Part shown: piece by piece, positions 34,301 to 58,300 of the stretch | How positions within the stretch are numbered: the stretch's first letter is position 1 | How the letters are laid out: every line of letters starts with the position of its first letter | DNA from: Blastomussa wellsi | Lineage: Eukaryota; Cnidaria; Anthozoa; Scleractinia; Plerogyridae | Assembly (NCBI GenBank): GCA_947652115.1 | Contig: OX393564.1 | Location: 11,180,373-11,244,372, forward strand | Direction of reading: 5' to 3' | DNA: 64,000 nt | The notes under the pieces: generated by a model | Database searches by the model: none | What the model saw: the letters and a program-made list of their open reading frames with translations, nothing else | What the model was told of the DNA's origin: nothing | Made by a program: the position numbers and the translations under genes

Positions 34301-37300
34301 GGTAGATTCATTGGAGAAAACATCCGACTAATCGACAGCATCATTCGCTATGCAAATGAGAAAAATATACCAGGGTTGCTACTGTTTCTTGACTTTGAAA
34401 AAGCTTTTGATACAATTGAATGGCCCTTCATCAGGAGCACTTTAGAATATTTTGGTTTCGGTACTGGTATAATAAAATGGTTAAACCTCTTCCACCAATC
34501 TTCTGAAAGTTGTGTCTTAAACAGTGGCTGGACAAATACCGCAGACTCTCTCTAATGGGTAAAATAACAGTCCTAAAGCGTCTAGTCGCCTCTCAAATCG
34601 TTTTTGTATTATCTCCTCTTCTTTCAAATGAGAAAGCCATCAAAGAACTAAACAAACTTTTCTTTTCATTCCTTTGGAGCGGAAAAACAGATAAAATTAA
34701 ACGGAATGCCATTATTAACGATTACCCGGGCGTCGGCCTCAAAATGATCGACGTAGACTGTTTTAGCAAATCCCTAAAAGCTACATGGGTAGAAAAATAT
34801 TTACACAAAGAGAATCAGGGAAAATGGAAACTTTTCTTTGATGTGGAGTTAGAGTCGCATGGAGGTCCAATAATCTTTACATCAAGTAATCTCAACACTG
34901 AAGACATAAAGATGCTTAGACTTAAGGATAACATCATCAAGGAAATTGCGACAATGTGGACAGAAGCTAATTTTGAAGATAGAATTATATCTGAGAATCA
35001 GTTCCTCAACCAAAAACTATGGCACAATTCACTGATCAGAATCGATAATTCACCCGTCTTCTACCCTGAATGGCAATATAAAGGTATAATAAAAGTGAAA
35101 CCTTTGAAAGATGATACAAATAACTTTTTATCTTTTCCTGAATTGCAGGAAAAATTCAGCCTTAAAACTTGTCCTCTCAGACACTGCGGTCTCATATCTG
35201 CACTTAAACGCCTTTGGCAAAGACACAAAAACGACTTTATTTTGGAAGACTCTGAATATGAAAGTTTTTCGGAAAAAGTAGAGAAATCACATAGAACAAG
35301 CCCACTCGAGTATAAAAAACTGGTTTCCAAAAAATCTGCGCCTCCTACTCAAACTCAACAGAAATGGTTTGATGATTGCAATACTAAAGATACAAAAGAC
35401 ATTAAATGGAATGAAGCCTATCTACTAGCCTTCCAATCCACCAAAAACCCAAAACGTATTGAGTTCCAATTCAAAATTTTACATAGACGGATATCAACTA
35501 ATGATTTCTTAACTAAAATTGGCGTACAAGATGAACCAAACTGCTCTTTCTGTAAAGAGGAACCGGAAAAACTAACCCAATGGTTCAAGCATTCCCAAGT
35601 AGTTCCAGAAAACTACTCGCTAAACATTTTTGCTGCTTTAGGACTGACACCGGACTGCTCGAAAAATCATTGCCAAATTAATTTCTGTTTTCTGCTGGCC
35701 AGATATTTTATTTGGATCCGTAAAAGTAAAAAAAAGTCTACCTAAAATAGAAGCTTTTGAACTCTATCTCAAATCAACTTTGAGCAAAAAGCAGGTGACA
35801 CAAACCAGGAAAAGTGGAAATGTTTAGAACCCCTTCTTATTACAGAGAAATAAAAAAGAAACTTAGGTATCTCGCTATCTTATGCACATAAGATTACTTT
35901 TCTAAATCCCCTGAAATAGGTAATTCCTTCACCGCTTTCCTGCTCCATCCATACGATGCCTGACACAAATTGCCTAAAGTTTGTAGCAAAAAGTTCATAA
36001 TGTTGTAAATAGAGTAATAAATGTATCATAAAAAATGTAGGTGGCGTACTGTAAATAGCTCATGTTGTATTGTAAGGAACGTAAGTATTGTATTGTATTG
36101 TCTGTTGATTACAATAAAAAAAATAAAAATTGTATCCGTTCGTTAGGATCAATTGGCTGATGCTGATAAGTGCACTGCTGTGCATGGAGCATCATGGGGT
36201 GATCACAGTGATGTTGTATCCGTTCGTTTGGATCACTTGGCTGATGATGATAAGTGCACTGCTGTGATGTTGTATCCGTTCGTTTGGATCACTTGGCTGA
36301 TGCTGATAAGTGCACTACTGTGCATGGAGCATCATGGGGTGATCACAGTGATGTTGTATCCGTTCGTTTGGATCACTTGGCTGATGCTGATAAGTGCACT
36401 GCTGTGATGTTGTATCCGTTCATTTGGATCACTTGGCTGATGCTGATAAGTGCACTACTGTGCATGGAGCATCATGGGGTGATCACAGTGATGTTGTATC
36501 CGTTCGTTTGGATCACTTGGCTGATGCTGATAAGTGCACTGCTGTGATGTTGTATCCGTTCGTTTGGATCACTTGGCTGATGCTGATAAGTGCACTGCTG
36601 TGCATGAAGCATCATGGGGTGATCACAGTGATGTTGTATCCGTTCGTTTGGATCAGTTGGCTGATGCTGATAAGTGCACTGCTGTGATGTTGTATCCGTT
36701 CGTTTGGATCACTTGACTGATGCTGATAAGTGCACTGCTGTGCATGAAGCATCATGGGGTGATCACAGTGATGTTGTATCCGTTCGTTTGGATCAGTTGG
36801 CTGATGCTGATAAGTGCACTGCTGTGATGTTGTATCCGTTCGTTTGGATCACTTGGCCGATGCTGATAAGTGCACTGCTGTGCATGGAGCATCATGGGGT
36901 GGTCACAGTGATGTTGTATCTGTTCTTTTGGATCACTTGGCTGATGCTGATAAGTGCACTGCTGTGCATGGAGCATCATGGGGTGGTCACAGTGATGTTG
37001 TATCCGTTCGTTTGGATCACTTGGCTGATGATGATAAGTGCACTGTAAACAATGTAGGTGGCGTACTGTAAATAGCTCATGTTGTATTGTAAGGAACGTT
37101 AGTATTGTATTGTATTGTCTGTTGATTACAATAAAAAAATAAAAATTGTATCCGTTCGTTAGGATCACTTGGCTGATGGTGATAAGTGCACTGCTGTGCA
37201 TGAAGCATCATGGGGTGGTCACAGTGATGTTGTCCAGCAGCTCCTTCAGCATGGAGCTGATCCAAATCTTGCTAACAAAGAGGGACGCACAGCATTAATC

Positions 37301-40300
37301 GCTGGAGCTTATATTGGTCATAAGAGAGTTATAGGAATTTTCATTAAAGACCGCAAATATCAACTTTCCAAGACTTTCATCACTGTAAGATATTGAGTTA
37401 CTAATGTCAGAAATGAAAAAAAGATTGCGGGTCACCAACTTCATTTTGGAGATAACATGCTCTGCTGAACACCCTAAATTGCACGAGAGTGACTCTAAGC
37501 CCAAAAATATTGCAAATAAATATCTGAAGTGAACGTGTCTCTGCCAAATGCTGTTCTGGTGGAGCCATTAAGTAAATTTTGACAGTAGACTTTATTCAGC
37601 TGCCATGTTCGTTTTTACGTTGTAATGCCAATTATGTACGTGATTTGTGAGGGGACAAACAAGCCAAATTCGATAAATTTCAGCTGGTTTCTTATCATGT
37701 CTGATAATTAAATTTCATAGTTATGCTTTAGTTTCAGTTTTGTAGTGAAAATATTTTGGCGCCTTTATAAAAAGAAGACGGCTTGCGTAGTTTGTTAGTC
37801 AAGTTACCGAGTGAAACTAACCTTATAATGAAATCACTATTCCATAACTTGCCTCTCAAATGTGGCTTTACGGTAGATACTTCACTATTTAGATGAGCTG
37901 ATTTTTCAAGCAACCGCATCATATTAATGTTTGCCCCCTGCCAGACAACGTGGCTTATTTGCATTATGATAAGAAAAACGTCACGGCGGCTATCGTGAAT
38001 AAGGTCTATTAGTGTGGTTCTTTAAAGGAAAAAAATGTATTTAATCTTTAAACTTCCCCCATTGATTTTTTGTTCGCTTAGGAGTCACCGACCATTTAAG
38101 AGAGTAAACTACAAGCGAAGTTAATGCAACAGCTTCTGGCCACCTCTTTTTCCCCAGCACATGCTTGATGGATGACTTGACATGAAATTGCAACATGAAT
38201 TGCATGCGCAGTAACGATACACTATAAACAATTAACATGAACATCCTTAGGCACGCTAGAAAACATTTTAAGGGTTTTATGTCTACACCATAACATCAAT
38301 CCCTCTTCATTTTTACAAATACATGTAACATTTTAAACTTATTTAGTCATGTACATGACTGTGTACATCACCAGATTGGCAGGCATCATATGCTAGTAGT
38401 CTGTTCACATTGTTTACACTTGTTCAGTGTTGTCCTTCATTACACTTGAGGTGTTATTACATTAGTGGTCAAACCCTGAAGTCTTTTTTGAAGGGTTATG
38501 ACGGCTTTTTTTAATTTTCACAGTCAGTCACAGCAAAATTTCTGCAATTGGAGATGAGGATTTATTTTGATTAATATTTGCGATGAAACCTTTCATCCTT
38601 ATGAATAACAAACTTAGCATAATTTTTCACAAATTATTAAGAACTAGCAAAAAAATATGGTGCACCACTTTTAGGCTTGGCTAAATCTACAGTTATCTTA
38701 CATTTGTAGTCAAGCCTTTGGGAGTGTTGCTACATAAATGCATTCTATTACCGGTAAGTTTTCATTTGTGGCTTCTACATGTACATGGTTAATTCTTCAT
38801 TGATCTATGATTGTTTAAGGTATATCATTAATTTGATGTTTATACGTTCCCCACCAAACTGTTCAAAAATCATAGGATAGGTAACTTCTATACCGCGACT
38901 TAAAGCTTGAGCTTAGTCAAGATATACAAAATCTTTGTAATTTTAAACAACCCAATGTATTTATTATCTTTCTGTTAGCTTAAGAACGATCAGAAATTAT
39001 TGTATTTGAATGTTTTCATTTCTTCAAGGTCTCATATGGAAGAATCATCTAAATTCATAAACTTACAATGTACATTCTAAGATACTACAATTATCAATGG
39101 CAATAAATTTATAGTACTCACCGTTTTAATTTCAAAAACTCTGTTCTTAGCTCGGAAGCTTCACTTTGTGCAATGGCAAGTTCTGTTTCTTTTTCTTTCA
39201 AGTAACACAATTGTTTCTGTCATTGAGAAAAATATTAACATGTAGCTTCAAAGGATCAATAGCCACCCAACAGAAAACACTGAAAGAGTTTCCAAAAGGG
39301 GAAAGGGTTTCAGTCAGCTACTGTTGAGAACCAAACCAATGAAATGTTTTTCGCTATTAAGACAAAGATTCTTCCCATTATTGATCCAGCTTTAGAAGGC
39401 AAAAATTTTGCAAAATATTGGCAAAATGTGAGTATTGAGGTTGCAAGACACAGGGGTTTCAATAAAATTTGAAGTAGGCAACTGCTTTGAGTAGAGTAGC
39501 CAACTGTTTTTTAATAATCTTTCTATTAATTCCTTCAATCTTGGAAAAAAAGGAGCCGACATTTCTAAGCAAAGTAGAGGAAAGTAGCCGACACTTTTCG
39601 CTGGTTGTCAGTGCTTATTGAAAGCACTGAAGACATGTTGAATGAACAGCAAAGTTGCAAGAAGTGAGAGCCTGTACATAGCCTTAGGGGGCTGACAACT
39701 TGGTGGCAACTACTTCACGAATCAAGTATCAAGTAGGAGCAAAGAAAATGAAAATAAAACTAGCAACTTGTGACATTTGTCATTCCCTTTTCAAAAAAGG
39801 TCCGCCGACCAATTTTGCTTCAAACTTGTTTCTGAAAGTAACACATGCTGTTGCTATAAGAGTCTTTTGATTTTTGTCTGGTTTGGAGTTTAGCAAATGT
39901 TTAAGATTATAGGTCTACATAATTTCCACTATTAAATTTTGCCTGACAGAATTTGACACCTCCATAACTTGCATACGTTTAAATCTGCCAGTATCTTTGC
40001 TCATAGGTAATACAGGAACCAACTTGTCGTCCGGCTTTGTCAGAGACAGCTAATGGTGCAATCTTGATAGCTTTAATTTGTATTAGCATGATATTTCCTG
40101 GTTGTACTGATTATAGTTATGCGAATCTAAGACCACTCGGCTTAAAGAATTTCGTTCCTGTGCTAATAACACTGTTCTGAGTTTGAAGGTTTAAGGGCTT
40201 TTCTTTGTGTTTTTGTAAATGTTTTCAGAGTTTTCACACACAAGGAATTATATGTACGTGTACCAGTCAAGTAAAATCAAGCCCAAATCCAAAAGAACAG

Positions 40301-43300
40301 TGCAAAATACAAACATGAGAACCTGCTAGCAGGCTCTACATACAGTTTGTTGTAATAGTACATCACATCTTGAGTGATTATAACATTTTTGTAACTTCAT
40401 TGGGCAGTTGTATATGTGGAGGCCACTGATGAGTGGGCCAACCCTGTGTTGGCCTATGAAACAGGCCTGCATTAAATAATTAAATAGACTGCAAAAACCG
40501 TGTACGAAGATCCTGCTTGATTGAACGTTGGATCTCGCAGGAGATCTACTCAGCCAAACTTGAAAAATTAATAAACGATGATAAGTCAAAGACTTCTGCA
40601 AGGCTGAAACAACGACTTACCCGGTGTAAAGTAATTTGATCATTTGAACTTCTGACCCTTGTTCCATTTCTTACCTTGAGTCCAGCAGTAGCTGATTTTT
40701 CTATTTGAAGTTTCTTCTCAAACTGTTTTCTTACTTCTTCCACAGCACACTCTTTAACCAAACAAAATGAAAACCAGCAATTATTCTATTGTAGTACCCA
40801 GGGCCCGGTTGTTCAAAACCGCGATTAGCGCTAATCGGGGATTAAATTGCTAAACCTATGATTAAAATTTAATCTGCGATTAGATTGCGTTGCTCAAAGC
40901 CCGATTAACGCTAATCTCACTCTAATCGGCGGGTTAAATTTAATACAACTCCGGAGGAAGATTAAATCGCGAATCGCCCAATTAATCAAACTTGAAACAT
41001 GGCTGACTTGTTATTTGACCTGCCTCGCACGAGACAAAGACGAGCACGAAGTTAGCATTCTCACTTACAACGACCAAGAACTTCGCGCTCGCTACAGATT
41101 CGGCAGAGCGTCTATTAATTCCATTACAAACCTCTTAGAGGCGGATTTACGGAGAAAAACGAAGAGTAATCACGCTCTGAAACCAATCGACCAAGTGCTG
41201 ATAGCACTACGATTTTATGCAAGCGGCAGTTTCCTGCAAGTTATTGGCGATACAATTAGAGTTGACAAGTCCACCGTTTCAAGGGCCGCGTCCATAACGT
41301 TTCCCAACTAATATCACCCAAGCAGAATGAATTCATAAAGCGACCAACAACTGCAGCCGCCATCAGGGAAAACAAGAACGATTTTTATCAAAGGAGGCAG
41401 TTTCCTGGGGTAATTGGTTGCATCGATGGGATGCACATCCGCATAATTGCACCAAGCAGCAAGGATGAAAGTGACTTTGTTAACCGGAAAAGTTTTCATT
41501 CCATAAATGTGCAAGGGGTTTGCGATCACAAAGGAAAGTTTGCTGTGGTGTGACTAATGTAAGGGCCATGTAAGCTTACTGAATTAAATTGTATGTTGAA
41601 TGAAACCTTTCCGCACCCGAATATAAAAGTCACGCAATTTCCCCCTAACGTTTTTAGGCCTCTTTGGTGATAAAGTAAATGCTACTGGGTAGCTTCCTCA
41701 CAAGAAAGGAATCTCTCACAGAAGAATGAAATAGTAAATCGACAAATTTCTGAACTTACCAGAAAAATTTTTGACAGAAAGAACACAGTAAATTATCGAC
41801 AAGCGAGACAGTGTAAGTGGTTTTACATGATGTACTAACCTTTAATCGGCGATTAACTAATCGGGCCTCAAATAGGACTTTGAACAACGTTTTCAATTCC
41901 ACCTATTAGCTAACCCAGTGTTAGTGATTTTAATCAACGATTAGACTTAATCGGGGGTTAGTTTAATCGCGGTTTTGAATAACCGGGCCCAGGTGAATTC
42001 AGTTGAATAAAACAGACATAGCTGTATCAGCTGGTGCAATTTTCAGTAATTACTGGTACCACAGGCATTTCCTTGAATAATTGCTGTAGGGATTGTTTCA
42101 GATAAATATTACTCTGTAAATTATTCCTAAATATTTTTTATCAATTCAGAATAACAAACAATAACTCCCTTGCCTAAGACAAAATTTTTCATGAATTAAT
42201 TTTTTAATCTTATTGAAAACAATATTGAAAATAAAATCAAATAATGTAAACTGAACATAGGCTTCCTATGTTTTCTTTAAACAATTTATAATACGATAAG
42301 AGTCTCAGCATCATACATAGACTAGATGTAATCAGTCAGTTTTGTTAGAATATTCCTCTAGCTGGGACAATTTCTGTGAAAGACTATTAAAGTGCTACTA
42401 TGATGAAATTTGGATGTCTCCAAACTAGGCCATATTAAAACATTAAACAGTAGTCTGCATGAGAAGAAAATTGCCGCTTACTTTTTTGAAATATCTTTCT
42501 TCGTTACAGAGATATTCAAGTTTTTAAAATATGCAAATTAGCTAATTGATGACGTCATAGACTCAACCAAATTTTAATCAAATAAATCTAGAAAGGAGCA
42601 GACTAGCAACAATTTTTATAAAAATAACGACACATTTGAAACTACGTTTGCAAGACATGTTTCGGTCGTTCAACGACCATCTTCAGTTGAAAGTAGAATT
42701 AATTTGAAGTTACATTTGAATTTATAATATAATGCTAAACAAAGATAACTAACAAGTGTGAAATAAATTGGGAACCTAACAAAATAGCCAAAAGTAACAA
42801 AAGAATGTACAATAGTAACATGCTGATTNNNNNNNNNNNNNNNNNNNNNNNNNNNNNNNNNNNNNNNNNNNNNNNNNNNNNNNNNNNNNNNNNNNNNNNN
42901 NNNNNNNNNNNNNNNNNNNNNNNNNNNNNNNNNNNNNNNNNNNNNNNNNNNNNNNNNNNNNNNNNNNNNNNNNNNNNNNNNNNNNNNNNNNNNNNNNNNN
43001 NNNNNNNNNNNNNNNNNNNNNNNNNNNNCTTTTCCCCAGTCATATCGTTGAGAGGGTTATTAGGCAGTATATTACTAAAACCCAGACCCTTTCGAACATA
43101 TCTGTTAGTCCTCCCTCTGATTCTACACATTTTTTCAAATTACCTTATGTTGGGCCCTTCTCTATTGTAGCACCAAACCGATTACGTGAACTAGTTAAAC
43201 GTTATTGTAACAATCTTGATATTAAGCTAGCCTTTTCTTCCTTTAAGATTCGTAACATGTTTAGTGTGAAGGACCCTGTGCCTGTTGACCTTCGTTCGAA

Positions 43301-46300
43301 TGTGGTCTACAAGTTTACCTGTGCAAGCTGTAATTCTTGCTATGTCGGCGAAACTAGCCGACACCTCTCGACACGCATTCGCGAACACCTAAACAGGGAC
43401 AGGACCTCACATATCTTTCAACACCTTCAACAATCTGAGGCATGCCACAAATCCTGCTCTACTGAATGTTTCAAAGTTATAGACCATGAGACCACAAAAT
43501 TCCAGGTCAAGATAAAAGAAGCGTTACATATCTCCTGGGAGCAACCTTCTTTAAACAAGCAATTATACCATGTTAATTTAACTCTCTCGTTCTAATCAGC
43601 ATGTTACTATTGTACATTCTTTTGTTACTTTTGGCTATTTTGTTAGGTTCCCAATTTATTTCACACTTGTTAGTTATCTTTGTTTAGCATTATATTATAA
43701 ATTCAAATGTAACTTCAAATTAATTCTACTTTCAACTGAAGATGGTCATTGAACGACCGAAACATGTCTTGCAAACGTAGTTTCAAATGTGTCGTTATTT
43801 TTTAATCAAATAAATGAAGTAAAAATATCTCACCCAGTTTGCATCAGAAATGTTTGATTCTTTGCATCATGACACTACTAGGTGAGTTGTGCAATATGCG
43901 ATTAACAATTATGTTACCATGGCAACATACTGGGTCCCAGACCTCCCTGATGTTAAAGACTATTATGGCCATTTCTGATATAGGAAAAGGAAAAAGTCCA
44001 CATGTTAAAGAAACAATGGACAACTGAGCAATCAGCTATTTGGGCGGCGACATGGGGGCCAGCAATGGTAGTATGACAACGATAGGCCAAACCTTGCAGG
44101 AAATCCAGTGTCTGACCAACTCCATCGGCACACCCAAACACTCGTGTGATGGGACAATTCAGGGTTCAAAATTTAAATTTTTTGTCCAGTTGCCCCTTGG
44201 GAAACCATAAGACTTGGTTTGGTTGCCCATAGAAATATTTTGGTTGTCCAAGCTCTTGTCCAGATCAAGCCAATAAACTACAGTACAGTAATATAGGTGG
44301 CCAAATAAAAAATACAATGACCTGTATTCAAAAGAGCGTCTTATATTTAATAAAATGTTTTGACCAGCCTGTACATATTTCCTATTTTTTAGTCCACCAG
44401 TAATGCAAACTTCTATTAATAATATTGTTTATGATATAGAGGGCAAAATTACTGAATGCTGATTGGCTGAGACAGAGGGCATTTTTTCATTAATATTGGT
44501 AAATGCCCGGGGCAAAATTACTTGATCCTGATTGGGCGAGCGTGAAATTTTCTCATTTCCAATTGGCTGAGCGCGCTGCACTGAGTTGGCTTCATGACGG
44601 CGGGATTTTGAACAAAATTATCAACCACAGCGCTCGCTTGTGTGTCGCCTCTGAATTTGCTTCAGTTTCCCAACTTATTTGGTGTAAAAAGAATGGAATC
44701 TTTGTGCTAGGTTAATGAAAACTTCCATCAGCAAGACACCGCAAGTTTGCGATGAAAATCATTCATGGCGATGGTGGCCAACTGACTTCTTGCTGCTTCT
44801 TCGTTTCGCTTCTGTCAAAAATGGTTTTACCACGTGCAACCGAAGTAAAGAGCACAGTGTTTGTCCAGAGAAGGAAGATGGTCAACTTTAACAAGCGAAA
44901 TTATCTCTGCTAGTTTGCTTGGACTCGCTATCGATGTCTAAGGATTAACATGTCAAGCACTTCGCAGTGGCAATCTTCAAAGCTTTATACAAACAGGTGA
45001 ATAAAATTACGCTTTTCATCGCTCATGGCTTGTACACTTATAACTTATTTATTTTCATGACTTACATTAAGATTTCAGCTTACATAACTGTCATCTTTAA
45101 GTAGTATAGGACTTAGCGGTTCGAGCGCATAAATTCAGCAGAAAAATTCAGTCAAAAAATTCAGTCAAAAAATTCAGCATAATTTTTCAATAATTTTCAG
45201 CAGAATTTTTTAGCAGAATTTTTCAATAATTTTTTGACTGAATTTTTTGACTGAATTTTTCTGCTGAATTATCAAACTGAAATCTCAGTATTGGATTTCA
45301 GTATTGGATATTAGTCCTGTTGTTAAAACTGGAGAAACAGAGGGGGGAATTGAATGATATTATCTATACGAAGTATAGATAATGTTCCATTACATAGTGT
45401 TAGATATATAATACTGGAATCCAGTATTATATATAAGTATTAAATCTCAGTATTGGATATTAGTGTTGGATTATAGGCCTGTTGTTGAAAATGGAGTTTA
45501 CATTAATATAAAACACCAATAGCAATAGTTTTATTCCCATCTCTTAAAATAATATTGGAATAGATACTGTTATTAGTATCTAGTATAAGACGGCATCAAT
45601 TATTTTTCCTTGACTGTTGTCTTTAGTTATGAATAAATTATTTTTTAGTTTAAATATTTCAACATCATATAATTTATCTTTTGTATGTAATTTACAAATG
45701 AAACCTTTTGTGATGATGTTTTTGATATTGCGAAAATTTAATTTGCTTTTAACTTCTTGATTATAAGGTTGAATTAGTTTAGTTTTACGATCAACTATAT
45801 CAATAGTATTTAAAGCTTCAAATAAAGAACAGTTAACTGAATTATTATATCGTTCTATAATATTATCTCCAAAATATGCTGATATTGGAACAAAAATAAC
45901 ATTTTTAAATCTGAATTTTTTTATCTTATTACTAAAGTCTTTTACAACATCATTGTATAGTTCTTTATTCCAATTAATAACATCCATCTTATTTATGCAA
46001 ATGATTAAGCAGTTGATTCCCATTCTACGAGCAATAAGAACATGCTCTAAAGTTTGTCCAGAGAGACCAGCTTCATATTCTCCTTTTCTAATTGATAAGA
46101 CTAAGACTGCAATATCAGCTAAAGCTGTTCCAAAGATCATTTCATTGACTAATTCTTTATGACCGGGCACATCAATGATACTATATTTTTTTTTCTTGAT
46201 AATTAAATGAAACTATATTGAAATTATGTGTTTTTCCTTTAACTTTTTCATAATTGTCTTCATCTAAAATGTGAGCCAACCACCATGTTGACATCTTAAT

Positions 46301-49300
46301 ATCATTAGCATTTTTCTTTATCTTTTCAATCTCTCTTTTATTAATGGTATTAGACTGTACTAATAGTTGACCACCCAATGTACTTTTACCATGATCTACA
46401 TTACCAATTAAAACAAATTTCATATATATATACATTATTATTATATGACATTTTATAGGCCTGAATATCAGTTGTGTAATTCAGTACTGTATATTAGTTA
46501 ATTAATTAAGTGTTGGATTTTATCTAGCTAATTTAGCAAAAAACTAAATTAGATAGATAATTCGGTATTGGAATTTATGAAATTATGAAAATTATTAGAA
46601 TCAGTGGAATTATTGGAATAAAGTAAATTAAAATTGTAATTATTGTTTTATATTATAATGACCATATGCATAACTAGTCTGGCCATCTTTATGAATATAT
46701 CTTTTATCATCAAAACAGCTGAGTGATATTTTATTAATCTCATAACTATATATCTGATGTTTTTCACTTCTGATTGTTTTCATCTTATGATACATCTGTT
46801 TATTATTGAATAGTGTTTCTTTATAGTGTTCATGTTGAATGTCTTTTTTAATTACATTCTTTTTTATTCCTTTAGCAGTCTTTCCACCTTTTTGGTCGTT
46901 TTTCATATAGCTGTACATTTTTGATCGTAGACCAACGAATTCACAAATAGGGACTCCACCTGCTTCATCTTTAAACTTTCCAATTACTTTTTTATTTGAC
47001 TTATCAAAGTAAGGTGAATTCTCTACGTAATCGCTATTATCGAATTTATCTTTATCAGCCCAAAAGTCTTTATAAGCATCTTCAGTTTCAATTTCATACA
47101 TTAGGCTGTCAGTATCTGTAAATAGTAATTTTGTTTTATTATTATATTTTTTCTGTATATAATTATAATGGAAATCATACATTAATGTTTTACTAAGTTC
47201 TAAAATGCACATACCAACATAAGCAGGTCTATTTAAAACCAGTTTTTCTTTAATTTTATGAACAGCAACTAAATTTTCATTAAATATCTTACAGCTGACA
47301 TAAGTTGGTTTGCTTGTGTATTTTAAAAGTTTCTTTTCATCTGTGATAAGTTTGACATCAACTCTCTTTCTTAGATTTTCCATTGTTTTTCCATAAACAC
47401 TGTTATTCATTAGTTTGAAAAAGTTTTTCTCAAAATTATTTTTAGCATTTGCTCTTTTTTTGTGTATTGTAATCAATATATTTTTTCAACCATGGAGATT
47501 GATTGAATTCAAGAACTCTATGAACTTTTTTTACTTTCAACCCTAGATCCATATATAGTTGAAGATTTCTATAATGAACAACATACTTTTCTTTGTTATT
47601 AAGAGTTGTAACTAATTTATAAACAAGACCAGTTGATATGTTGTATTTCTCAGATATATTTTTACAATATTCAGATAACATTTCTTTATTGATTTTGATT
47701 TTTTCTGGCGCAACTGGATAATCATTATGTTGATTGTGTAATTTTTTAGGATATTCTAAGTCGACTTCCAATATTAATCCTTTTTTACTATCTTCAGTGT
47801 ATTTATCTAAATTTAAATTATCAATCTTCTCCCTTTTCATCCATTTAAATCCACCAGTTGGAAGAGATTGACTCATAGCCCAACCGTATAGATTATTGGC
47901 GTCAAGATACATGATATATTTAGATGGTTCATTTTTATTATAATTTTTCATATATTTATTATTAGCTTTTCCATAACGATTAGCAATATAACTGATTCCC
48001 CCTCTCATTCCCTTTTCAATGAATAAAAACATGTCAATATCAGTTATTAATTCTAATTTAATATCAGTCATTTTTAACATAGCATCCCATGATAACCCTG
48101 GAGATGAGAAATAATGACATGGATCAAGTCTATAATATTCAAGACATGTTTTTCTGAAATTTTCAAATACATCAGCTAGTAGAAGTACATCTGTTTTTAA
48201 ATATAAATCATGATAATCACCCATATTTTTCAAAGAGAATGTTTTCCAAACATTTTTAGCATGTTGATAATCTTCATCTGAAATATCTTCATTGTTTAAA
48301 ATACTGCGGAACTGTTCTTTTGATGGAAGTGGAGAATTAAACTTATCAAAGCTGTCCATATAACCATATGGATAAACTCCTTTTCTCAACATAAGATTAA
48401 ATTGATTTTCATCTTTGAAAGCTTTTGATATATATTTGAATGAATCTTTTGGTGTATTGTTAACAAGTTCTTGTAAACTTGAACTCAAAAATTGGAAACT
48501 GTCAATAAAAGTTAGATGATTACCAAGCATGAAAGCGATATACTTTTCCATATTATTTGGAATTGCATTTATATTCATCTGGCATTTCTCTCCTTTCTTA
48601 TTTGTATATTCATAATTTTTAACGACATTGCCAATTTCTTGCATAATAAAATGGCTATCATAACCTCTGAGATTATGAAATATTACAGGAATTTTAATTT
48701 GTTCTGGAATTGTTTTAAGTTTAAGATTACATTCCGGATGAGCAGATCCTTTATATTTACCAGTGATATGACAATGATCTCTTACTTTGATATCTTCATC
48801 AGTGTATTCTTTATTACAGATATAGCATTTATCAGCTTTTTTGAAATCAACTTCATCTTCTTTTGTCATTTTTAAAGGTTTATTTAATTCATTTTTCATA
48901 ATAGTTTTACAATATTTAACTTCCATCAACATCCTTTTCATGAAAATGCTAACAGCTTTATCACCTCTATAAAGTGTAAGTGGTTTGCTATATTTATTAT
49001 TATAACAACATACCAATTTATAACCAAAACCACAATCTGTATGTTTTTGATATGATTCTGTATAAGATTTATTATTATCTTGTGAACAACTTGATATTTT
49101 CTCTGTTATTGCTTCAAAATCTGCATAAATTACAAATGGTATTGGTTGTTGTTTATCAAAGTTATTAAATTTTAAAATATTCTTTCCTTTCATTGGCATT
49201 TCAATAGCTTGTTCACCATTTACAAGTAAACAGTTTTCTTTATGTTTTGTTAGAACTTCATCTGAACTAAAACACTGAAGACAATGCATACAGAAATGTT

Positions 49301-52300
49301 TTCTTCCTTCATATTTTGTTTTTGAATACATTAATCTATTAAAATCTTTAATCAGAACATAATGTTTGTTCTCATTTTCTGTTATCAATAGTAAATTTAA
49401 TTCATTATTATTTTTTTCTTTTGATATATAAATAGGATATACCTGTTTATTTTCATATCCAAATACATTAATATTAATATTATTTTGTTTTTCAATTTTA
49501 TTATATTGTTTAATAGTCACTGGAAATTCAATTTCGGAATAATCTAACTTATTAATATATTTTATATCTGATTTTTTAATCCTCTGTGGATCTTTATCTT
49601 GTGGGTTTAAATACCGAATATGGCACCATCTAAAACATTCATTATCCTCATTCTTAATATTGATCAATCCTTTTTTACTATTTCTAAGTTCTGGTGGTAG
49701 TGGAATATAAGAGGATCCCTTCATTGGTTTATATATTACAATATTAAGATAATGATTATCAATAGATTTAATAGTCCAACCAGATCCTTCAGACACCCAT
49801 TGAGCAGTTTTATTTAATATTTGTTGTTTTGATAAATCCAATGATTCTTTTATTCCAGCTTCATTTATAATAGTTTGTGGTGTACTATTAAAATAAGCAG
49901 TTTTATTAATTTGTCCATCATTCGCTATTTTTTTAAATGTTACTTTTAATGTTTCAACGAATTTCAGACCTTTTAATTGTTTGAGAATATTATTTATATG
50001 AAATCCAATACCAATTCTCGTCTTTTTTAACTGTAATAATGGGTCTTTATCATTTATAATGCTTATTGTAAAAGACTTAGTATAACCCTTCAATGCTTGA
50101 TTCAATTGCTCTATCTCAGTTTTTGGTTTATATTGTTTTATTATTCTCTTGTGCTCTCTTTTGAGTTTTTTTAACTGTTCCAAGTGTTGTTTATTTTTGA
50201 TTTTATTTATGATTGTATTTTGCTTATGTTTATTAATAATTTCTATTCTTTGATATAATTTAACATTATCAATTACTTTTTGTCTGGTTGTTTTTTTAAC
50301 TAGATCTAACCATTTATAACCTAATTTTTTAGCGGTTTTGTAGTATCGAGTTGAGAGTAGCTTGAAAAAATACATTCTATATATTTAGATTAGATAATTT
50401 TTGTTTAAGTAGCTATATCTGAACATTTATTGATAAGGCATATAAATAAATATTATCTAATATAAATATATAGAACGACAACAATTACAATCAACGAGTG
50501 CGTTTATCATGTCCACCCAATATATGACTTATATGCAGCCAATAAAGATGGAGAGTTGATCCACATAATAAAGAAAACACCAATAAAAGGTAACAAGAAT
50601 CATAGTGGTTACTTGATTTGTAATGTAAGGAAGCACGCTCAGAACGGACAAAAAGCATGCCAGGTTCATCAATTTGTTTGGGAATGTTTTAATGGTATTA
50701 TACCAGAAAATAAAGTTATTGATCATATAAATAATAATAAGGAAGATAATCGGTTAATTAATTTACAACCTATAACACAAAAACAGAATTGCAAGAAGTC
50801 AACAAAAGAAAGAGATTATACATTCGTTGCTAATAATCATAAAAATAAGAAATGTGTTAAAACCACTAATTGTAACACAAATGAAGTTTCGTATTATAAC
50901 AGTATGTATGCAATTCGACAACATCTCGGTATTAACGCAGGTATTGTTAAGATGGTATGTGAGGGTATCAATAATTGTAAATCTGGTATATCAAAGAAAG
51001 ACGGACATTCTTACAAATTTGAATATGTTAAACCAGATGAATTACCTGAATATTGAGTACGTCAGTATCTTGACTGAGATTAGGCACTTTTGGTCCTACA
51101 TTCAATTCATCTTTCAGCAATACCTTTTCAAACCCAATCAGTTCATTGAAATTGCTTGCTGTTAAATCAAGTTGGTAATTTTCAGCTAATGTGACTGTGA
51201 CTCTGAATGTTGTATTGCTGAATTCAAGAGTGATGGGATAATCAACAGTATTTGGACCATTTGGTACAACTTTTTCAATCTTGGTTATGTCCTTAATGTA
51301 CGTATCGAAATCTGTATAATTCCAAACTCCTGCTGGGAAAGTAATTTCATGAAATGTTGAGCCGTTATCAGAGCTATACTTTATTAATTGATTATTATAT
51401 GAGGAATTTACATTAAACCATGTGAACGACATGTTAACGATTCGGTTAAGGCCTACCACATATTCATATTTTTTACTCAATATTATGGGATGTGTGAATT
51501 TAGTTGTAAAATTCTGAGGAGTGTTGTTTCCTTGATTTTTGACACTATATGATGACAATACAATCTCTCGATCCATGTGTATATAATACATTTACATAAA
51601 TTACACTTTGAAATACTTATTATACAATTTATTATACTGCGATCTATTAATTGTTGCCATTTTCAATAATGTGTCCAATATATTGACTCCTGTATTTCTC
51701 ATCTGAATTGATGTGTTACCTGCAATAACTTCACCAATGATTAATTCTAATTTCTTGAGAAGCTGCTTTACATCATTGAAAAACATAATATTACCACCTC
51801 TCTGTCTTCTTCGGCCTTTAATGCCTGAACCTTTCATTGTTTTCAGTTTATTATTATGTTTTATGTATTCATTTAAAGTAATTCTTGTATCGTCTATTAT
51901 TTTATTTTTCTCCTGCCTATCAGCTTCTGTGATAAGCCCTTTTTTGTATTGTTTTGTAACATTTGCTTTAAAACCCTTCAATTGATGCTTTTTATAGATT
52001 GCATCCTTTATTATTCTATTGAGATATTTGTTGGTTTTTTTAGCAGTCATTTCTTGCTGATTAAGAACCTTTTCAACATTTTCATAATCTGGAATACCAA
52101 TGTCATTTAAAATATATTTCATTTTATCCTCATCATCTATTTCATAATCAACTCCTTCATCATCATCATATTCAGGTGGCAGCTCCTGATGATCTTGGGG
52201 AAAATATTGGGGATCGACATAAATCTCCTTATTTCCTTCCATAATATCTTGTAAAGATTTTTCATATTTTGGTGGTTTTGGTACTATTTGTTTTTCTTGC

Positions 52301-55300
52301 TGTGGTGGCACATAATCACCAAAATCAACCAAACCTTCTACATCCATGTCTTCATATGGATCAACTTCATCCTCAGTATCGATACCATAATCCGGAACTT
52401 CCCCTTTCTTCGGTGGTTGTTTTCTCTTTCGAAGCATATTTGAAACCAAATTAGTTGTAATTACATCATCTAATTTACTTGTCACTGGTTTAAATACCTT
52501 CTGTAATGACTCTTGGCTTGTCTGCTGACCAATATTATGTTTTGTAATTGTATCATGGACATAATTGATTTTATTCCCTAATTCAGATTTACTTTTTGCG
52601 AGTTCTTTCCATCTAAGTAAACTCATTTGTTGTTATATTATTATGTTACATAAAAAATGAAAATCGTATATAAAAAATAACGTTAAACGTTATGTTGAAC
52701 ACCATGTTGAACACTATGTTGAACACTATGTTGAACACCATATTATATTAAATTTATGTAACATAATAATATAATGAAAATACCAAATTATGATGTTGAA
52801 GATAATGTAGTCTCAAACTTCAAACAACGATATAATTTCATGCCTCATCAATGTTTTCGGATGCTGATTTGTGGTCCAAGTGAATCAGGAAAACAAACAT
52901 ATTGATGCATATGATCTACAATCTACTGATTTATCTGAGTCAATGTTATTATAAGACGCCAAAAGACATAAGATTGAACTGTTCACACTTCTCCATTTAT
53001 AAATTCCCAAGTGCTAATGAGAATAGTTTAATTTGCCGTGAAAACAGTATTCTAAAAAAATCATTTGAGAAAGCAACGGAATAACCATACAGCTTCATAT
53101 ACATTGATAAACCAAGAAAATTCACAGCTAAAAATTTCAATGAAAAAATATAATCTAATTATATAATGAGTTATTCAAATGGACTTTTACCGACATCAAC
53201 AACAACAACAATGATGAGTTCACAACGGGGATTGCCTGGTATTGGTTTTAAATTGACAGATGATGGAAATTATAATCTCGATTATAAACTAATAAGGAAT
53301 CTTGAATCCCCACCAGATGTCGCCGAGGATGATAGTTATGATCACTACGTAACAGATCTGAAGTCGGGTGTTAATAAAGAATACCTCAATAGTAAATTCC
53401 TCAAAAAAGACAAAGATGGTAATTATTTTGATTTAAATCAATATGTTATTAGAAACACAGAACCATATCATGATGGGCTTTTTGGAGATAATGATTTGGT
53501 GAGCAAAAAATATGTTGACCTGACCAGTAATAGTTTATTACCTATTGATGGATCAAAACAAATGGCTGGTGATCTTGACATGAACAACAAACACATAAAC
53601 AACGTCAGTAGTCCTTCCACAAATTTACAAGTAGCAAATAAAGCGTATGTTGATTTGATCTCATTGTCAGTTCTCGGTGAGAATAAGATGCTTGCAGATC
53701 TTGACATGAACCAAAAAAAGATAATAAACCTAAAAGATCCCATTGATGATCAAGACGCTGCTACTAAACAATGGATAAACACTCAACTAAATACAAAGGT
53801 AAGCAAATCAGGTGATTCCATCAATGGCACTCTTGATATTTTTGGGCTATTAGACATGAACAATAATAAAGTTGTCGGTATGGCTAACCCTTCAGCTGCA
53901 CGTCATGGTGCTAATAAATCGTATGTTGATTCACAACTTGCTAAAAAACTTAACCTCTCTGGCGGGAATATGAATGGTAATATAAACTTTAATAATACTC
54001 ACAAAATAATCAATTCAGCAAATCCAACAACTGATAATGATTTAACCACTAAAAAGTATATGGAAGATCATGTGAGTCAATCACATGTAACCGCTTCCGA
54101 CAGATTAAATGTTTTCAAATATATTATGGATAATCCTGGCGGACAATTAACTGAAGAAGATGATGTAGAATTTGGAGATATGGTGACTGTGCAATCAAGT
54201 CCTCATTCAATAAATAAAAATGCTGTTGACACAAAACTACTTTTGGACTAGAATAAAGGATATTATAGTTCGAGAATAGCGGTTAATCTATATGTTTTAC
54301 CTAATAGTGATTACACAATGGCTTTTGAACTTATTTGGACTGATAACAATATCGATCGCGATACTATATCTATCAACGGTGTTAGTACCATTGAAACGAT
54401 TCATAATGTTTTGAAAAAGGTTTTTGATGATTATGCTAGATTAATCATTCAGTTCACTAAGACACAAAATATTGGAAACAACTATTTATATATCAATGTT
54501 ATTATGAAAATGAAAACTGGGGTATCATATCCTGCAAAACTTCAGACATACATACTATTTTATGGCGTTAAAGGTATTCAATCAAACGTAGCACCAAGTA
54601 TTTATGATGCTTTATGGACTGTTGGTGATGGTAAAATTGTAATGAATGAAGTCATTGATATGGATGGTAAGGAAATAAAGGGGATTAAAGAAGATACTAT
54701 GGATTCTGGAGCTGTTAATTATAAACAACTTGTTGCATACTGTTTGAGTCTTAAAACAAAATTGAATGATTTAATCAATAAAAAACAGAATCAAAGCTAT
54801 TATGAAGAGTTATTTGATGATTGGTTTGATTGTCTTGACCCAAATATGTTTAATATCAATAAAACAGCAAATGGCGCTGTTGTTAACAAAATAAATAACC
54901 GGTTGATTTTTGACCCGACAAAGGATCTGGATGATTTTGATATGTCTCAAGGTTTTGTGTTAGGCGCGTATTTTGACCTATATGATAATATAGACATAAA
55001 TGGTGATATGACGTTGATGGTTACTTTTAAGCATAGTGAAGCTATCCAATTTATTCAATTTTATGGGTTGCATAATCTCGGCTATATCCACATTTATAAA
55101 GATTCATTAAAACTTAGAATTGGTAGAAATAACTTTACTAAAGCAATATCATCAAATTATAAAGATAAACAATTAATGATTTGGTTTGCAAAAAGAACTA
55201 ATCTTTGGCAGCTTTGTCTATGTGATAACGCTGTTTTCATCAATGAAACATTGAATATAAAATGTCAACTTTAGCAGAATCAGATTTGCATTCTCACAAC

Positions 55301-58300
55301 ATGTTCAACGTATTGGATTCAGCCCCAAATTTTATGCTGTAAATAACCCAGAATTCCATAAAATATTATTTCTCGAGAAATTGAAAGGAACATATTTTAT
55401 ATAATCAATTAATATATGAACACTGAAAAGATAAGAATTTGGTTAAAAAAAGTAAAAGATTTCATTATTTGCTGCAGAAAAACAATAGATGAAGTTGAGG
55501 TTGTTGTTGAACAAATAGATTGAAGTATATATAACATAGATAATATATAATATGATAGAAGAATATATAATATATTATAAGATAAAAGAAAATATAATAT
55601 ATTATATATGAAAAATCAACGTAAAAGCATATTTAACTGGAATCACATATCAAACAAACTAACAGAGGATCAGATAAAGGAATTAAAATCATACTACCAC
55701 ACATATCATAGAAAGTGTTGGGTATATAAACAAGCTGTAAAACACTTTAAAAAATGGAAATTGTTGGGGAACTCACTGTCTATCATCTTTGCTTCTGGAG
55801 GTATAGCCTCAACTTTAACAACGGGTGGTGTTAGTTTGATTGCTATTAGTACTACAGCACTTCTAATCCAAGGTTGGATGAAGCATAAAGACCTTGATTT
55901 AAAAATACAAAATTCAACATATGCTTATCAAAGTTATAATCATCTATTAATTATGATAAAATATGCAATGAGATTAGGTGAATTTGACAGAGAATGTTTA
56001 ATTAATTCAATGAATAATATTGATAGTTATGTTATTGATATTGGACCTGTTGTTGATAAATTTTATAAAAAATATGATCAGATATTTTGTCCTGAAGAAT
56101 AGATTTAATTTTATCACCAATTAGATTCATTATTTCGTTCCAATATTTATTATAAAATGCTAGTGTCTTTTTTGATTTTGTTGAAGTGATATCTTTATAA
56201 TGAATATTCATCATCTTAAACAGTTCTATGATTAGAAATTTAATATTAATCATTCGTTTACGACTATTATTAACTAAATGTAGAACATTATCAATCTCAT
56301 TGAATGCTTTATAAATCCGTTCCCTTTGATTACAAGTTAATTGAACATTATTATTAAAATATAATTTATTAATCAAATTCTCAATATGGTATTTGCGATA
56401 ATATATAGATTTCCTTTTCATTTTATACATATTTTCATAGAAATTAAACTTATTCATTGTGAAGTTATAACCATCAACTAAACCACAACTTATACATGTA
56501 TTCATTCCATTTAAATCAATGACATTTTGATTATCACAACATTTTTCATTTTCCATCTTATTATTATATGTCAACTGTTTATCACAAAAAGGACAATTAT
56601 ATTGATCAATAATTTTTAATTCATTATGTATGTCATCATTGCAACTCATCTTATATATAATTATATAATCTATATTACAAAAATGCATAAATGTATACCC
56701 ATGTTCTGAGCAAAACTTGCCACCACATTTACATTCAAATGGTATCAGTCCATACTTTTTATTACATATTTTAAACGCACTTAAAGAAATATTTTTATAT
56801 AAATATATAATATAGAATGGAAAAAACTGTTGAATATTGGACATGTGAAATTTGTAATAAAGATTACAAATTAAATAGTAAAAAAAGTCATTTAAATACA
56901 CATAAACATATAGATAATGAAATAAAAAAAGATGAAATATGGAAAAACCTTTTAAATACATATACAGTTGGTTAAATGTAATTAGATAAAAATATCTAAT
57001 TAGATTATCTTATAAAAAACATTTTCATAAACATTTTCAACAACAGGCCTATAATCCAACACTAATATCCAATACTGAGATTTAATACTTATATATAATA
57101 CTGGATTCCAGTATTATATATCTAACACTATGTAATGGAACATTATCTATACTTCGTATAGATAATATCATTCAATTCCCCCCTCTGTTTCTCCAGTTTT
57201 AACAACAGGACTAATATCCAATACTGAAATCCAATACTGAGATTTCAGTTTGATAATTCAGTTTGATAATTCAGCAGAAAAATTCAGTCAAAAAATTATT
57301 GAAAAATTCTGCTGAAAAATTCTGCTGAAAATTATTGAAAAATTATGCTGAATTTTTTTACTGAATTTTTCTGCTGAATTTATGCGCTCGAACCGCTAAG
57401 TCCTATACTACTTCTTTATCGTATTTTGAACGTTTTTTGATCATGTTGTTTTGCCGCATGATGTTAGTAAGCTATGTTTTCATTCCGCTCGCTAGATTAA
57501 TAGCTACGAACCTTGAAGGTTTCCAGAAAATTTTGCCCTCTATGTCATAAACAAGTAATCACATGTTTCCTCGTAAAATTACGGATTAATATCACTTGTG
57601 TTTTCAGAAGCTGCAGAAATTGCCTTCATCGCTGCGCGACTCAGGCAAATATTCTGCAACTTCTGAAAACATGCGTGATATTAATCCTTAATTTTACTTG
57701 GCCCCATGCGATTACCTATACAAAAATCAACACACAAGGAGCAGAAGAGACTCATTAACACAGAATCGCACAACACTGTTTTAAACAAGAAAGGGCAAAC
57801 AACATGGTGCAAGTATTAAATTGCCATCAAACTTCAGAACAATCATGGCAGCATCACAGGGCAGATTTCACTACTGCATCATGGACTGCATTTAGAGATA
57901 CCAACTGCTGGTTAACGTACAACAGGCTTGTTTGGATTAAATGTGCAAAAGAATTTGAGTCAACTCGAAGAGTTTAAGGGAGGAATACCTTCCAACAGTG
58001 TGCGATAAACAGAAATTTCTTCCATAAAATTATTTGGTTTAATTTTGACTAACATTAACTAAATAAAGGTATCAATAACTCATCAAAGACAAAACATGTG
58101 ATATTAATTTATCCAACCTTTTGAATAGGGACTAGTGCCATGGCAGATTAGGTTGCCCATGGGGCAACTACTCAGCACAATTTGGTTGCCCCATCATAAT
58201 TTTGGTTGTCCTGGACAACCAGACAACCAACCCTGGACATTGGAATATACAGAGCTTGCACAGGGGAGGGAGAACAGCACAGGTGGCCAAAATGGACATA

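What the first reader, a model, noticed from the sequence alone, without database searches (positions are those of the whole stretch)
45100..57412. 12.3 kb Polinton-like viral element in a TRAIP intron, with intact ends
Both ends, the AG...CT termini, 0.39 kb inverted repeats and a perfect TCTTTA duplication are visible. The gene set mixes Polinton marks (PolB, packaging ATPase, virion-like proteins) with genes not usual in classic Polintons (EF1A-like GTPase, VLTF3-like factor, HNH gene). It may represent a poorly described lineage of Polinton-like viruses in this animal group.
Basis: partly seen in the sequence, partly recalled or inferred. Interest (0 to 1): 0.92.

Follow-up and report, generated by a model that had tools for sequence, protein, structure and literature searches.

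The report
Defective Polinton carrying EF1A-like GTPase gene
This is a young but broken copy of a virus-like Polinton element common in this animal genome; it has lost its integrase and main shell genes by deletion, but carries a shortened cousin of a translation-factor GTPase that I found no report of in such elements.

The parts
45094..45099 (.). left target-site duplication TCTTTA
   Evidence: read directly
45100..45494 (+). left terminal inverted repeat, with 13-bp tandem array
45580..46212 (-). EF1A-like GTPase, second frame (switch II, NKMD, start of domain III)
   Evidence: PF00009 4.2e-19
46181..46480 (-). EF1A-like GTPase, first frame (P-loop); frame changes in an A-run
   Evidence: PF00009 8.9e-12
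46640..47485 (-). PolB, C-terminal frame
   Evidence: 89-92% to five relatives; PolB by recalled motifs
47442..50384 (-). PolB, N-terminal frame, with endonuclease VII-like stretch (residues 511-556)
   Evidence: PF02945 1.2e-5
50466..51056 (+). HNH_3 endonuclease gene
   Evidence: PF13392 9.5e-14; also beside PolB at C13 and C16:12.29 Mb
51047..51048 (.). junction of the ~5.9-kb deletion
   Evidence: whole only here among 40 scored of 77 candidates
51028..51591 (-). penton-like minor capsid gene, 3' part missing (187 aa against 262 aa in a relative)
   Evidence: name by recall
51601..52632 (-). P20, presumed virion protein of unknown fold, open frame
52735..53150 (+). packaging ATPase remnant with ~0.25-kb internal deletion at 52927
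   Evidence: relative is Pox_A32 1.8e-13
53154..54251 (+). fibre-like gene, first part (T7 tail-fibre-like)
54252..55274 (+). fibre-like gene, second part after an in-frame stop; one 749-aa frame at the matching place in several relatives
55608..56102 (+). P8, small protein found at this end in other copies
56032..57009 (-). open frame with VLTF3-like factor (about 56032-56652) and an AN1-type zinc-finger motif upstream in the same frame
57031..57412 (-). right terminal inverted repeat (inner limit approximate)
57413..57418 (.). right target-site duplication TCTTTA
   Evidence: read directly

Best explanation
A recently inserted, defective copy of a Polinton (Maverick/adintovirus-type) family, usually 17-18 kb, of a probably anthozoan genome. 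Shown: element ends, duplication, a sister and relatives with the fuller gene set, two internal deletions, broken frames. Inferred: it was copied by protein-primed PolB replication and inserted by an rve integrase with a 6-bp staggered cut; without its own integrase, protease, capsid and ATPase it cannot now package or move itself. It belongs to a sub-lineage that carries a free HNH gene beside PolB and, next to the left repeat, a ~310-residue EF1A/eRF3-type GTPase made of G domain plus domain III without domain II. The GTPase is most likely an accessory gene that binds a domain-III partner (eRF1, Pelota or tRNA) or the ribosomal GTPase centre and so alters host translation or ribosome rescue during infection; that step is inference from architecture only.
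Against: PolB, major capsid and penton names rest on recalled motifs, length and order; no profile search named them. The genome-wide count of the GTPase gene could not be obtained: that search did not complete (18 tries). Of 28 other repeat-flanking loci, each with only ~1.5 kb on either side, one held it; 15 of the 28 show VLTF3-like hits, so many are the opposite end, where it is not expected. The domain-III sequence match is weak (9.3 and 3.6 bits); the fold match carries it. Selection on the GTPase is unclear: dN/dS window against C13 is 0.39 over 204 codons of the second frame, but the 112-codon comparison with C4 has 9 non-synonymous and 1 synonymous change (2.2), and the 80- and 82-codon comparisons have no synonymous change. 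The gene is broken in the window and at C4.
Confidence: 0.87

Rival explanations
1. A self-standing compact 12.3-kb lineage of Polinton-like viruses.
For: Intact ends, duplication and nearly identical repeats; several open frames remain.
Against: No integrase, capsid or protease-like gene and only a gutted ATPase; three interrupted frames; junction not seen in the 39 other scored places; relatives hold the missing block in place.
Confidence: 0.04
2. A trans-mobilised satellite: the deletions arose before insertion, and the short genome was inserted by integrase from full-length relatives with matching ends.
For: Repeat arms identical over ~220 bp, so insertion is young, yet two deletions, two frame breaks and one stop are present; longer relatives with related ends exist.
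Against: The first junction was whole only in the window among 40 scored of 77 candidates, so no spread is seen; the second junction could not be tested; few informative sites, so decay after insertion is not excluded.
Confidence: 0.25
3. Assembly error: the frame breaks in A-runs, or even the deletions, are sequencing or collapse artefacts.
For: Both frame breaks sit in A homopolymers.
Against: The first deletion junction is not at a homopolymer and the fibre break is an in-frame stop without a change of frame; no reads were available to test this.
Confidence: 0.1
4. The EF1A-like gene is a host gene or pseudogene captured by chance, not a working Polinton gene.
For: Found in a minority of the copies examined; broken in the window and at C4, partial or fragmentary at three other loci; one short dN/dS comparison is above 1.
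Against: Same truncated architecture in other database proteins at 42-80% identity with conserved G motifs; sits between PolB and terminal repeat in the window and C13, and next to a repeat at C4; open frame in C13.
Confidence: 0.15

Closest known systems
Polintons / Mavericks
   Same: 6-bp duplication, AG...CT ends, long inverted repeats; a relative has rve integrase with chromodomain, A32-type ATPase and a protease-like gene
   Different: window copy lacks integrase, protease-like gene and capsid; sub-lineage adds an EF1A-like GTPase
Adintoviruses, including the Stylophora coral adintovirus mentioned in PMC11071308 (passages seen)
   Same: animal host, rve integrase with C-terminal chromodomain in a relative, coral relatives of the capsid
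   Different: no OTU-like domain was found in the window polymerase; the Starrett 2021 paper is not held, so gene-by-gene comparison was not possible
EF1A, eRF3, Hbs1 GTPases
   Same: G domain and domain III fold, G motifs
   Different: domain II (about 95-115 residues) absent; about 310 residues in all
NCLDV VLTF3 (PF04947)
   Same: 13 of 14 family members scanned match PF04947
   Different: sits in a Polinton; the window protein itself does not reach the profile

Membership tests
Polinton/Maverick | long terminal inverted repeats with 6-bp target duplication | tested here: met
Polinton/Maverick | rve integrase | tested here: not met
   no hit in the window copy; present in relatives, e.g. 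P0013. So the window copy is filed as a defective derivative of the family, not as a complete member
Polinton/Maverick | protein-primed PolB | tested here: inconclusive
   recalled PolB motifs only; no profile match; two broken frames
Polinton/Maverick | A32/FtsK-type packaging ATPase | tested here: met
   Pox_A32 1.8e-13 in a relative; only a gutted remnant in the window
Polinton/Maverick | double jelly-roll major capsid | tested here: inconclusive
   P0017 of a relative assigned by recall, length and order; fold not tested; gene absent from the window
Adintovirus | integrase with C-terminal chromodomain (definition from passages of PMC11071296) | tested here: met
   relative P0013; not in the window copy
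Adintovirus | PolB with N-terminal OTU-like domain | tested here: inconclusive
   Pfam showed none in P0003; a divergent OTU would be missed
Adintovirus | hexon recognisable by BLASTP to reference adintoviruses | not tested
   reference sequences not at hand
Polinton-like virus (PLV, as set against polintons) | mostly lacks pPolB and rve integrase (passage of PMC11071308) | tested here: not met
   relatives have rve and a PolB-like gene
EF1A/eRF3-type GTPase | G domain with P-loop, DxPGH, NKxD | tested here: met
EF1A/eRF3-type GTPase | domain II beta barrel | tested here: not met
   profile and fold alignments leave it out
VLTF3 | match to PF04947 | tested here: inconclusive
   13 of 14 members scanned match, but 12 of the 13 relatives chosen were already labelled PF04947; the window protein P0009 does not match

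The most novel reading that the evidence does not exclude
Anthozoan Polintons carry, and swap among divergent capsid types, a working translational GTPase that has dropped domain II. It would act as a decoy or modulator of eRF1/Pelota or of the ribosomal GTPase centre, a way of interfering with host termination or ribosome rescue that the papers searched here do not describe for any Polinton as far as the listings show.
Probability: 0.3. Interest if true: 0.75.

Novelty: new variant of a known kind. Interest (0 to 1): 0.5.

Why it matters
Polintons are common in coral genomes (1.4-6.7% of three coral genomes are annotated Maverick in PMC12005156, passages). A domain-II-less EF1A/eRF3-like GTPase gives a testable link between an animal Polinton and host translation. 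The VLTF3 result offers another origin for the single NCLDV-like VLTF3 gene reported amid host genes in the anemone Exaiptasia (PMC5294986, passages): it may be a Polinton gene (inference). Copies whose polymerase and integrase are closely alike but whose capsid genes are 30-38% identical show capsid-module exchange within one genome.

Tried and rejected
TRAIP: searched six frames for a single-exon RING pattern (none), scanned ten ORFs outside the element with Pfam and read flanking ORFs; left unconfirmed. Compact-lineage idea: dropped. Polymerase identity by profile: Pfam, PHROGs and PDB gave none and a single-sequence fold of P0002 was poor, pLDDT 40, so not used. Viral contigs (IMG/VR): no relatives found for the GTPase, capsid or polymerase, a close-relative search only. 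Literature: 'Polinton' with 'GTPase' and 'elongation factor' gave one paper, on Thaumarchaeota; 'Polinton' with 'elongation factor' gave 11, none about Polinton-encoded factors by title and abstract start; only open-licence papers are held. Papers: passages only of PMC11071296, PMC11071308, PMC5294986, PMC12005156, PMC10586311; all others search listings. Starrett 2021 is not held.

Selections and limits: GTPase context was read only in loci held: 28 repeat loci other than the window's two (1 positive) and eight loci flanked (five positive, two of them fragments of 22 and 31 residues; one of the eight, C4:27.9 Mb, was chosen because it was already positive, and the other seven because their polymerase is among the closest to the window's). 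For one search I gave 14 sequences: P0009 and 13 of its 96 relatives, 12 of them already labelled PF04947; of all 96, 58 bear that label by my count. One search scored 40 of 77 candidates.

Full report
What was checked. The element runs from 45100 to 57412. TCTTTA stands directly outside both ends and the first and last bases are AG and CT. The two arms pair at 96% over 357 nt. Aligned base by base (372 matches, 8 substitutions, 16 gap columns), apart from one base at the inner limit of the compared stretch, they differ in an array of 13-bp units, and the inner ~220 bp is identical. G+C is 27.7% in the element and 37.7% in the flanks. So the unit is real, and by its arms young; exchange between the arms could also keep them alike.

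The ends recur. A search of the host genome (368 Mb, 124 contigs) with the left arm gave 160 matching stretches with 40 of 140 candidates scored, including nine opposing pairs 16.9-23.6 kb apart, seven of them 16.9-18.3 kb. Polymerase relatives gave 67 stretches with 47 of 1,899 candidates scored; fibre relatives gave 140 with 113 of 296 scored. These are lower bounds by the tool's own statement.

What a fuller relative holds. Five middle pieces were fetched, their frames listed and one was annotated. It has a Bro-N protein, rve integrase with chromodomain, PLA2-like protein, a protease-like protein (Peptidase_C5 at E 0.026, below the curated cut-off), P16, a 421-aa protein that I take for the major capsid, a small P18, a 262-aa penton-like protein, P20 and a Pox_A32-type ATPase. 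The capsid, penton and polymerase names rest on recalled motifs, size and order; no profile named them.

What the window copy lacks. Of those ten proteins, seven had no tblastn hit in the window at E <= 0.01; penton, P20 and ATPase did. Against the sister on contig C13 the window lines up on both sides of a ~5.9-kb gap (L050 988 to 6928) with a junction at 51047-51048, and again on both sides of a ~0.25-kb gap inside the ATPase. Adding both to 12.3 kb gives about 18.5 kb, near the usual spacing. The right end of the C13 element was not fetched. A 201-bp probe across the first junction matched whole only at the window; the other 39 of 40 scored places (77 candidates) matched only from base 98 on, 16 of them at 100%. 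So no spread of the deleted form is seen. The second junction could not be tested. Further damage: the GTPase and polymerase genes each change frame in an A-run, and the fibre gene has an in-frame stop where several relatives have one 749-aa frame.

The neighbourhood is mosaic. Window against C13: GTPase region 93% over 1,168 bp, HNH region 81.5% over 676 bp, penton end 98.2% over 554 bp, ATPase end 96% over 274 bp. In three loci (L040, L045, L047) integrase is at least 94% identical while capsid is 30-38% over the parts held. In five loci the polymerase lies in the opposite orientation to the integrase gene (L039, L043, L045, L047, L049). These are signs of module exchange and inversion.

Host. 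Of the 120 capsid relatives listed (of 2,572 found) seven bear names: six from Oculina patagonica and one from Montipora capricornis, at 78-80%; both are stony corals. The host is therefore probably an anthozoan; its name is not given. Mavericks are known to be abundant in corals (PMC12005156, passages), and a coral adintovirus is mentioned in PMC11071308 (passages).

VLTF3-like gene. Relatives of P0009 number 96 at E <= 0.001; 58 of them bear PF04947 by my count. In a scan of 14, 13 match (best 2.5e-10), though 12 of the 13 relatives chosen were already so labelled; the window protein itself matched only an AN1 zinc finger lying upstream in the same open frame. P0009-like hits lie near 15 of 28 other repeat loci. 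It offers another origin for the VLTF3 reported in Exaiptasia as an NCLDV-like gene amid host genes (PMC5294986, passages); that is inference.

HNH gene. HNH_3 (9.5e-14) lies beside PolB also at C13 (80.5%) and C16:12.29 Mb (97%). Homing endonucleases inside Polinton polymerases are known (PMC11071308, passage), so this is ordinary.

Verdict. An ordinary defective Polinton copy, correctly spotted by its ends, wrongly read as a compact lineage, carrying one gene of real interest.

Noticed in passing
L040, L045, L047 (C4:28.05 Mb, C16:12.29 Mb, C16:9.80 Mb): Integrase at least 94% identical to the main type with capsid genes only 30-38% identical over the parts held: capsid-module exchange within one genome.
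   Followed up: partly
L039, L043, L045, L047, L049: PolB gene inverted relative to the integrase gene, unlike C13 (L050) and the main-group piece L037.
   Followed up: partly
G000 C9:12399927-12425524: Four fibre and four penton copies at regular ~7.3-kb spacing, as of a tandem array of Polinton fragments.
   Followed up: no
window 42819-43595: GIY-YIG match (0.0003, just under cut-off) beside an N-filled gap, like a Penelope-type retroelement (Penelope label recalled).
   Followed up: no
window 45119-45283 and 57242-57393: 13-bp tandem units in the terminal repeats, with unit changes between the two arms; many extra partial matches near other copies' ends suggest longer arrays there.
   Followed up: partly
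window 36147-37396: Repetitive open frames followed by an ankyrin-like stretch (label recalled).
   Followed up: no
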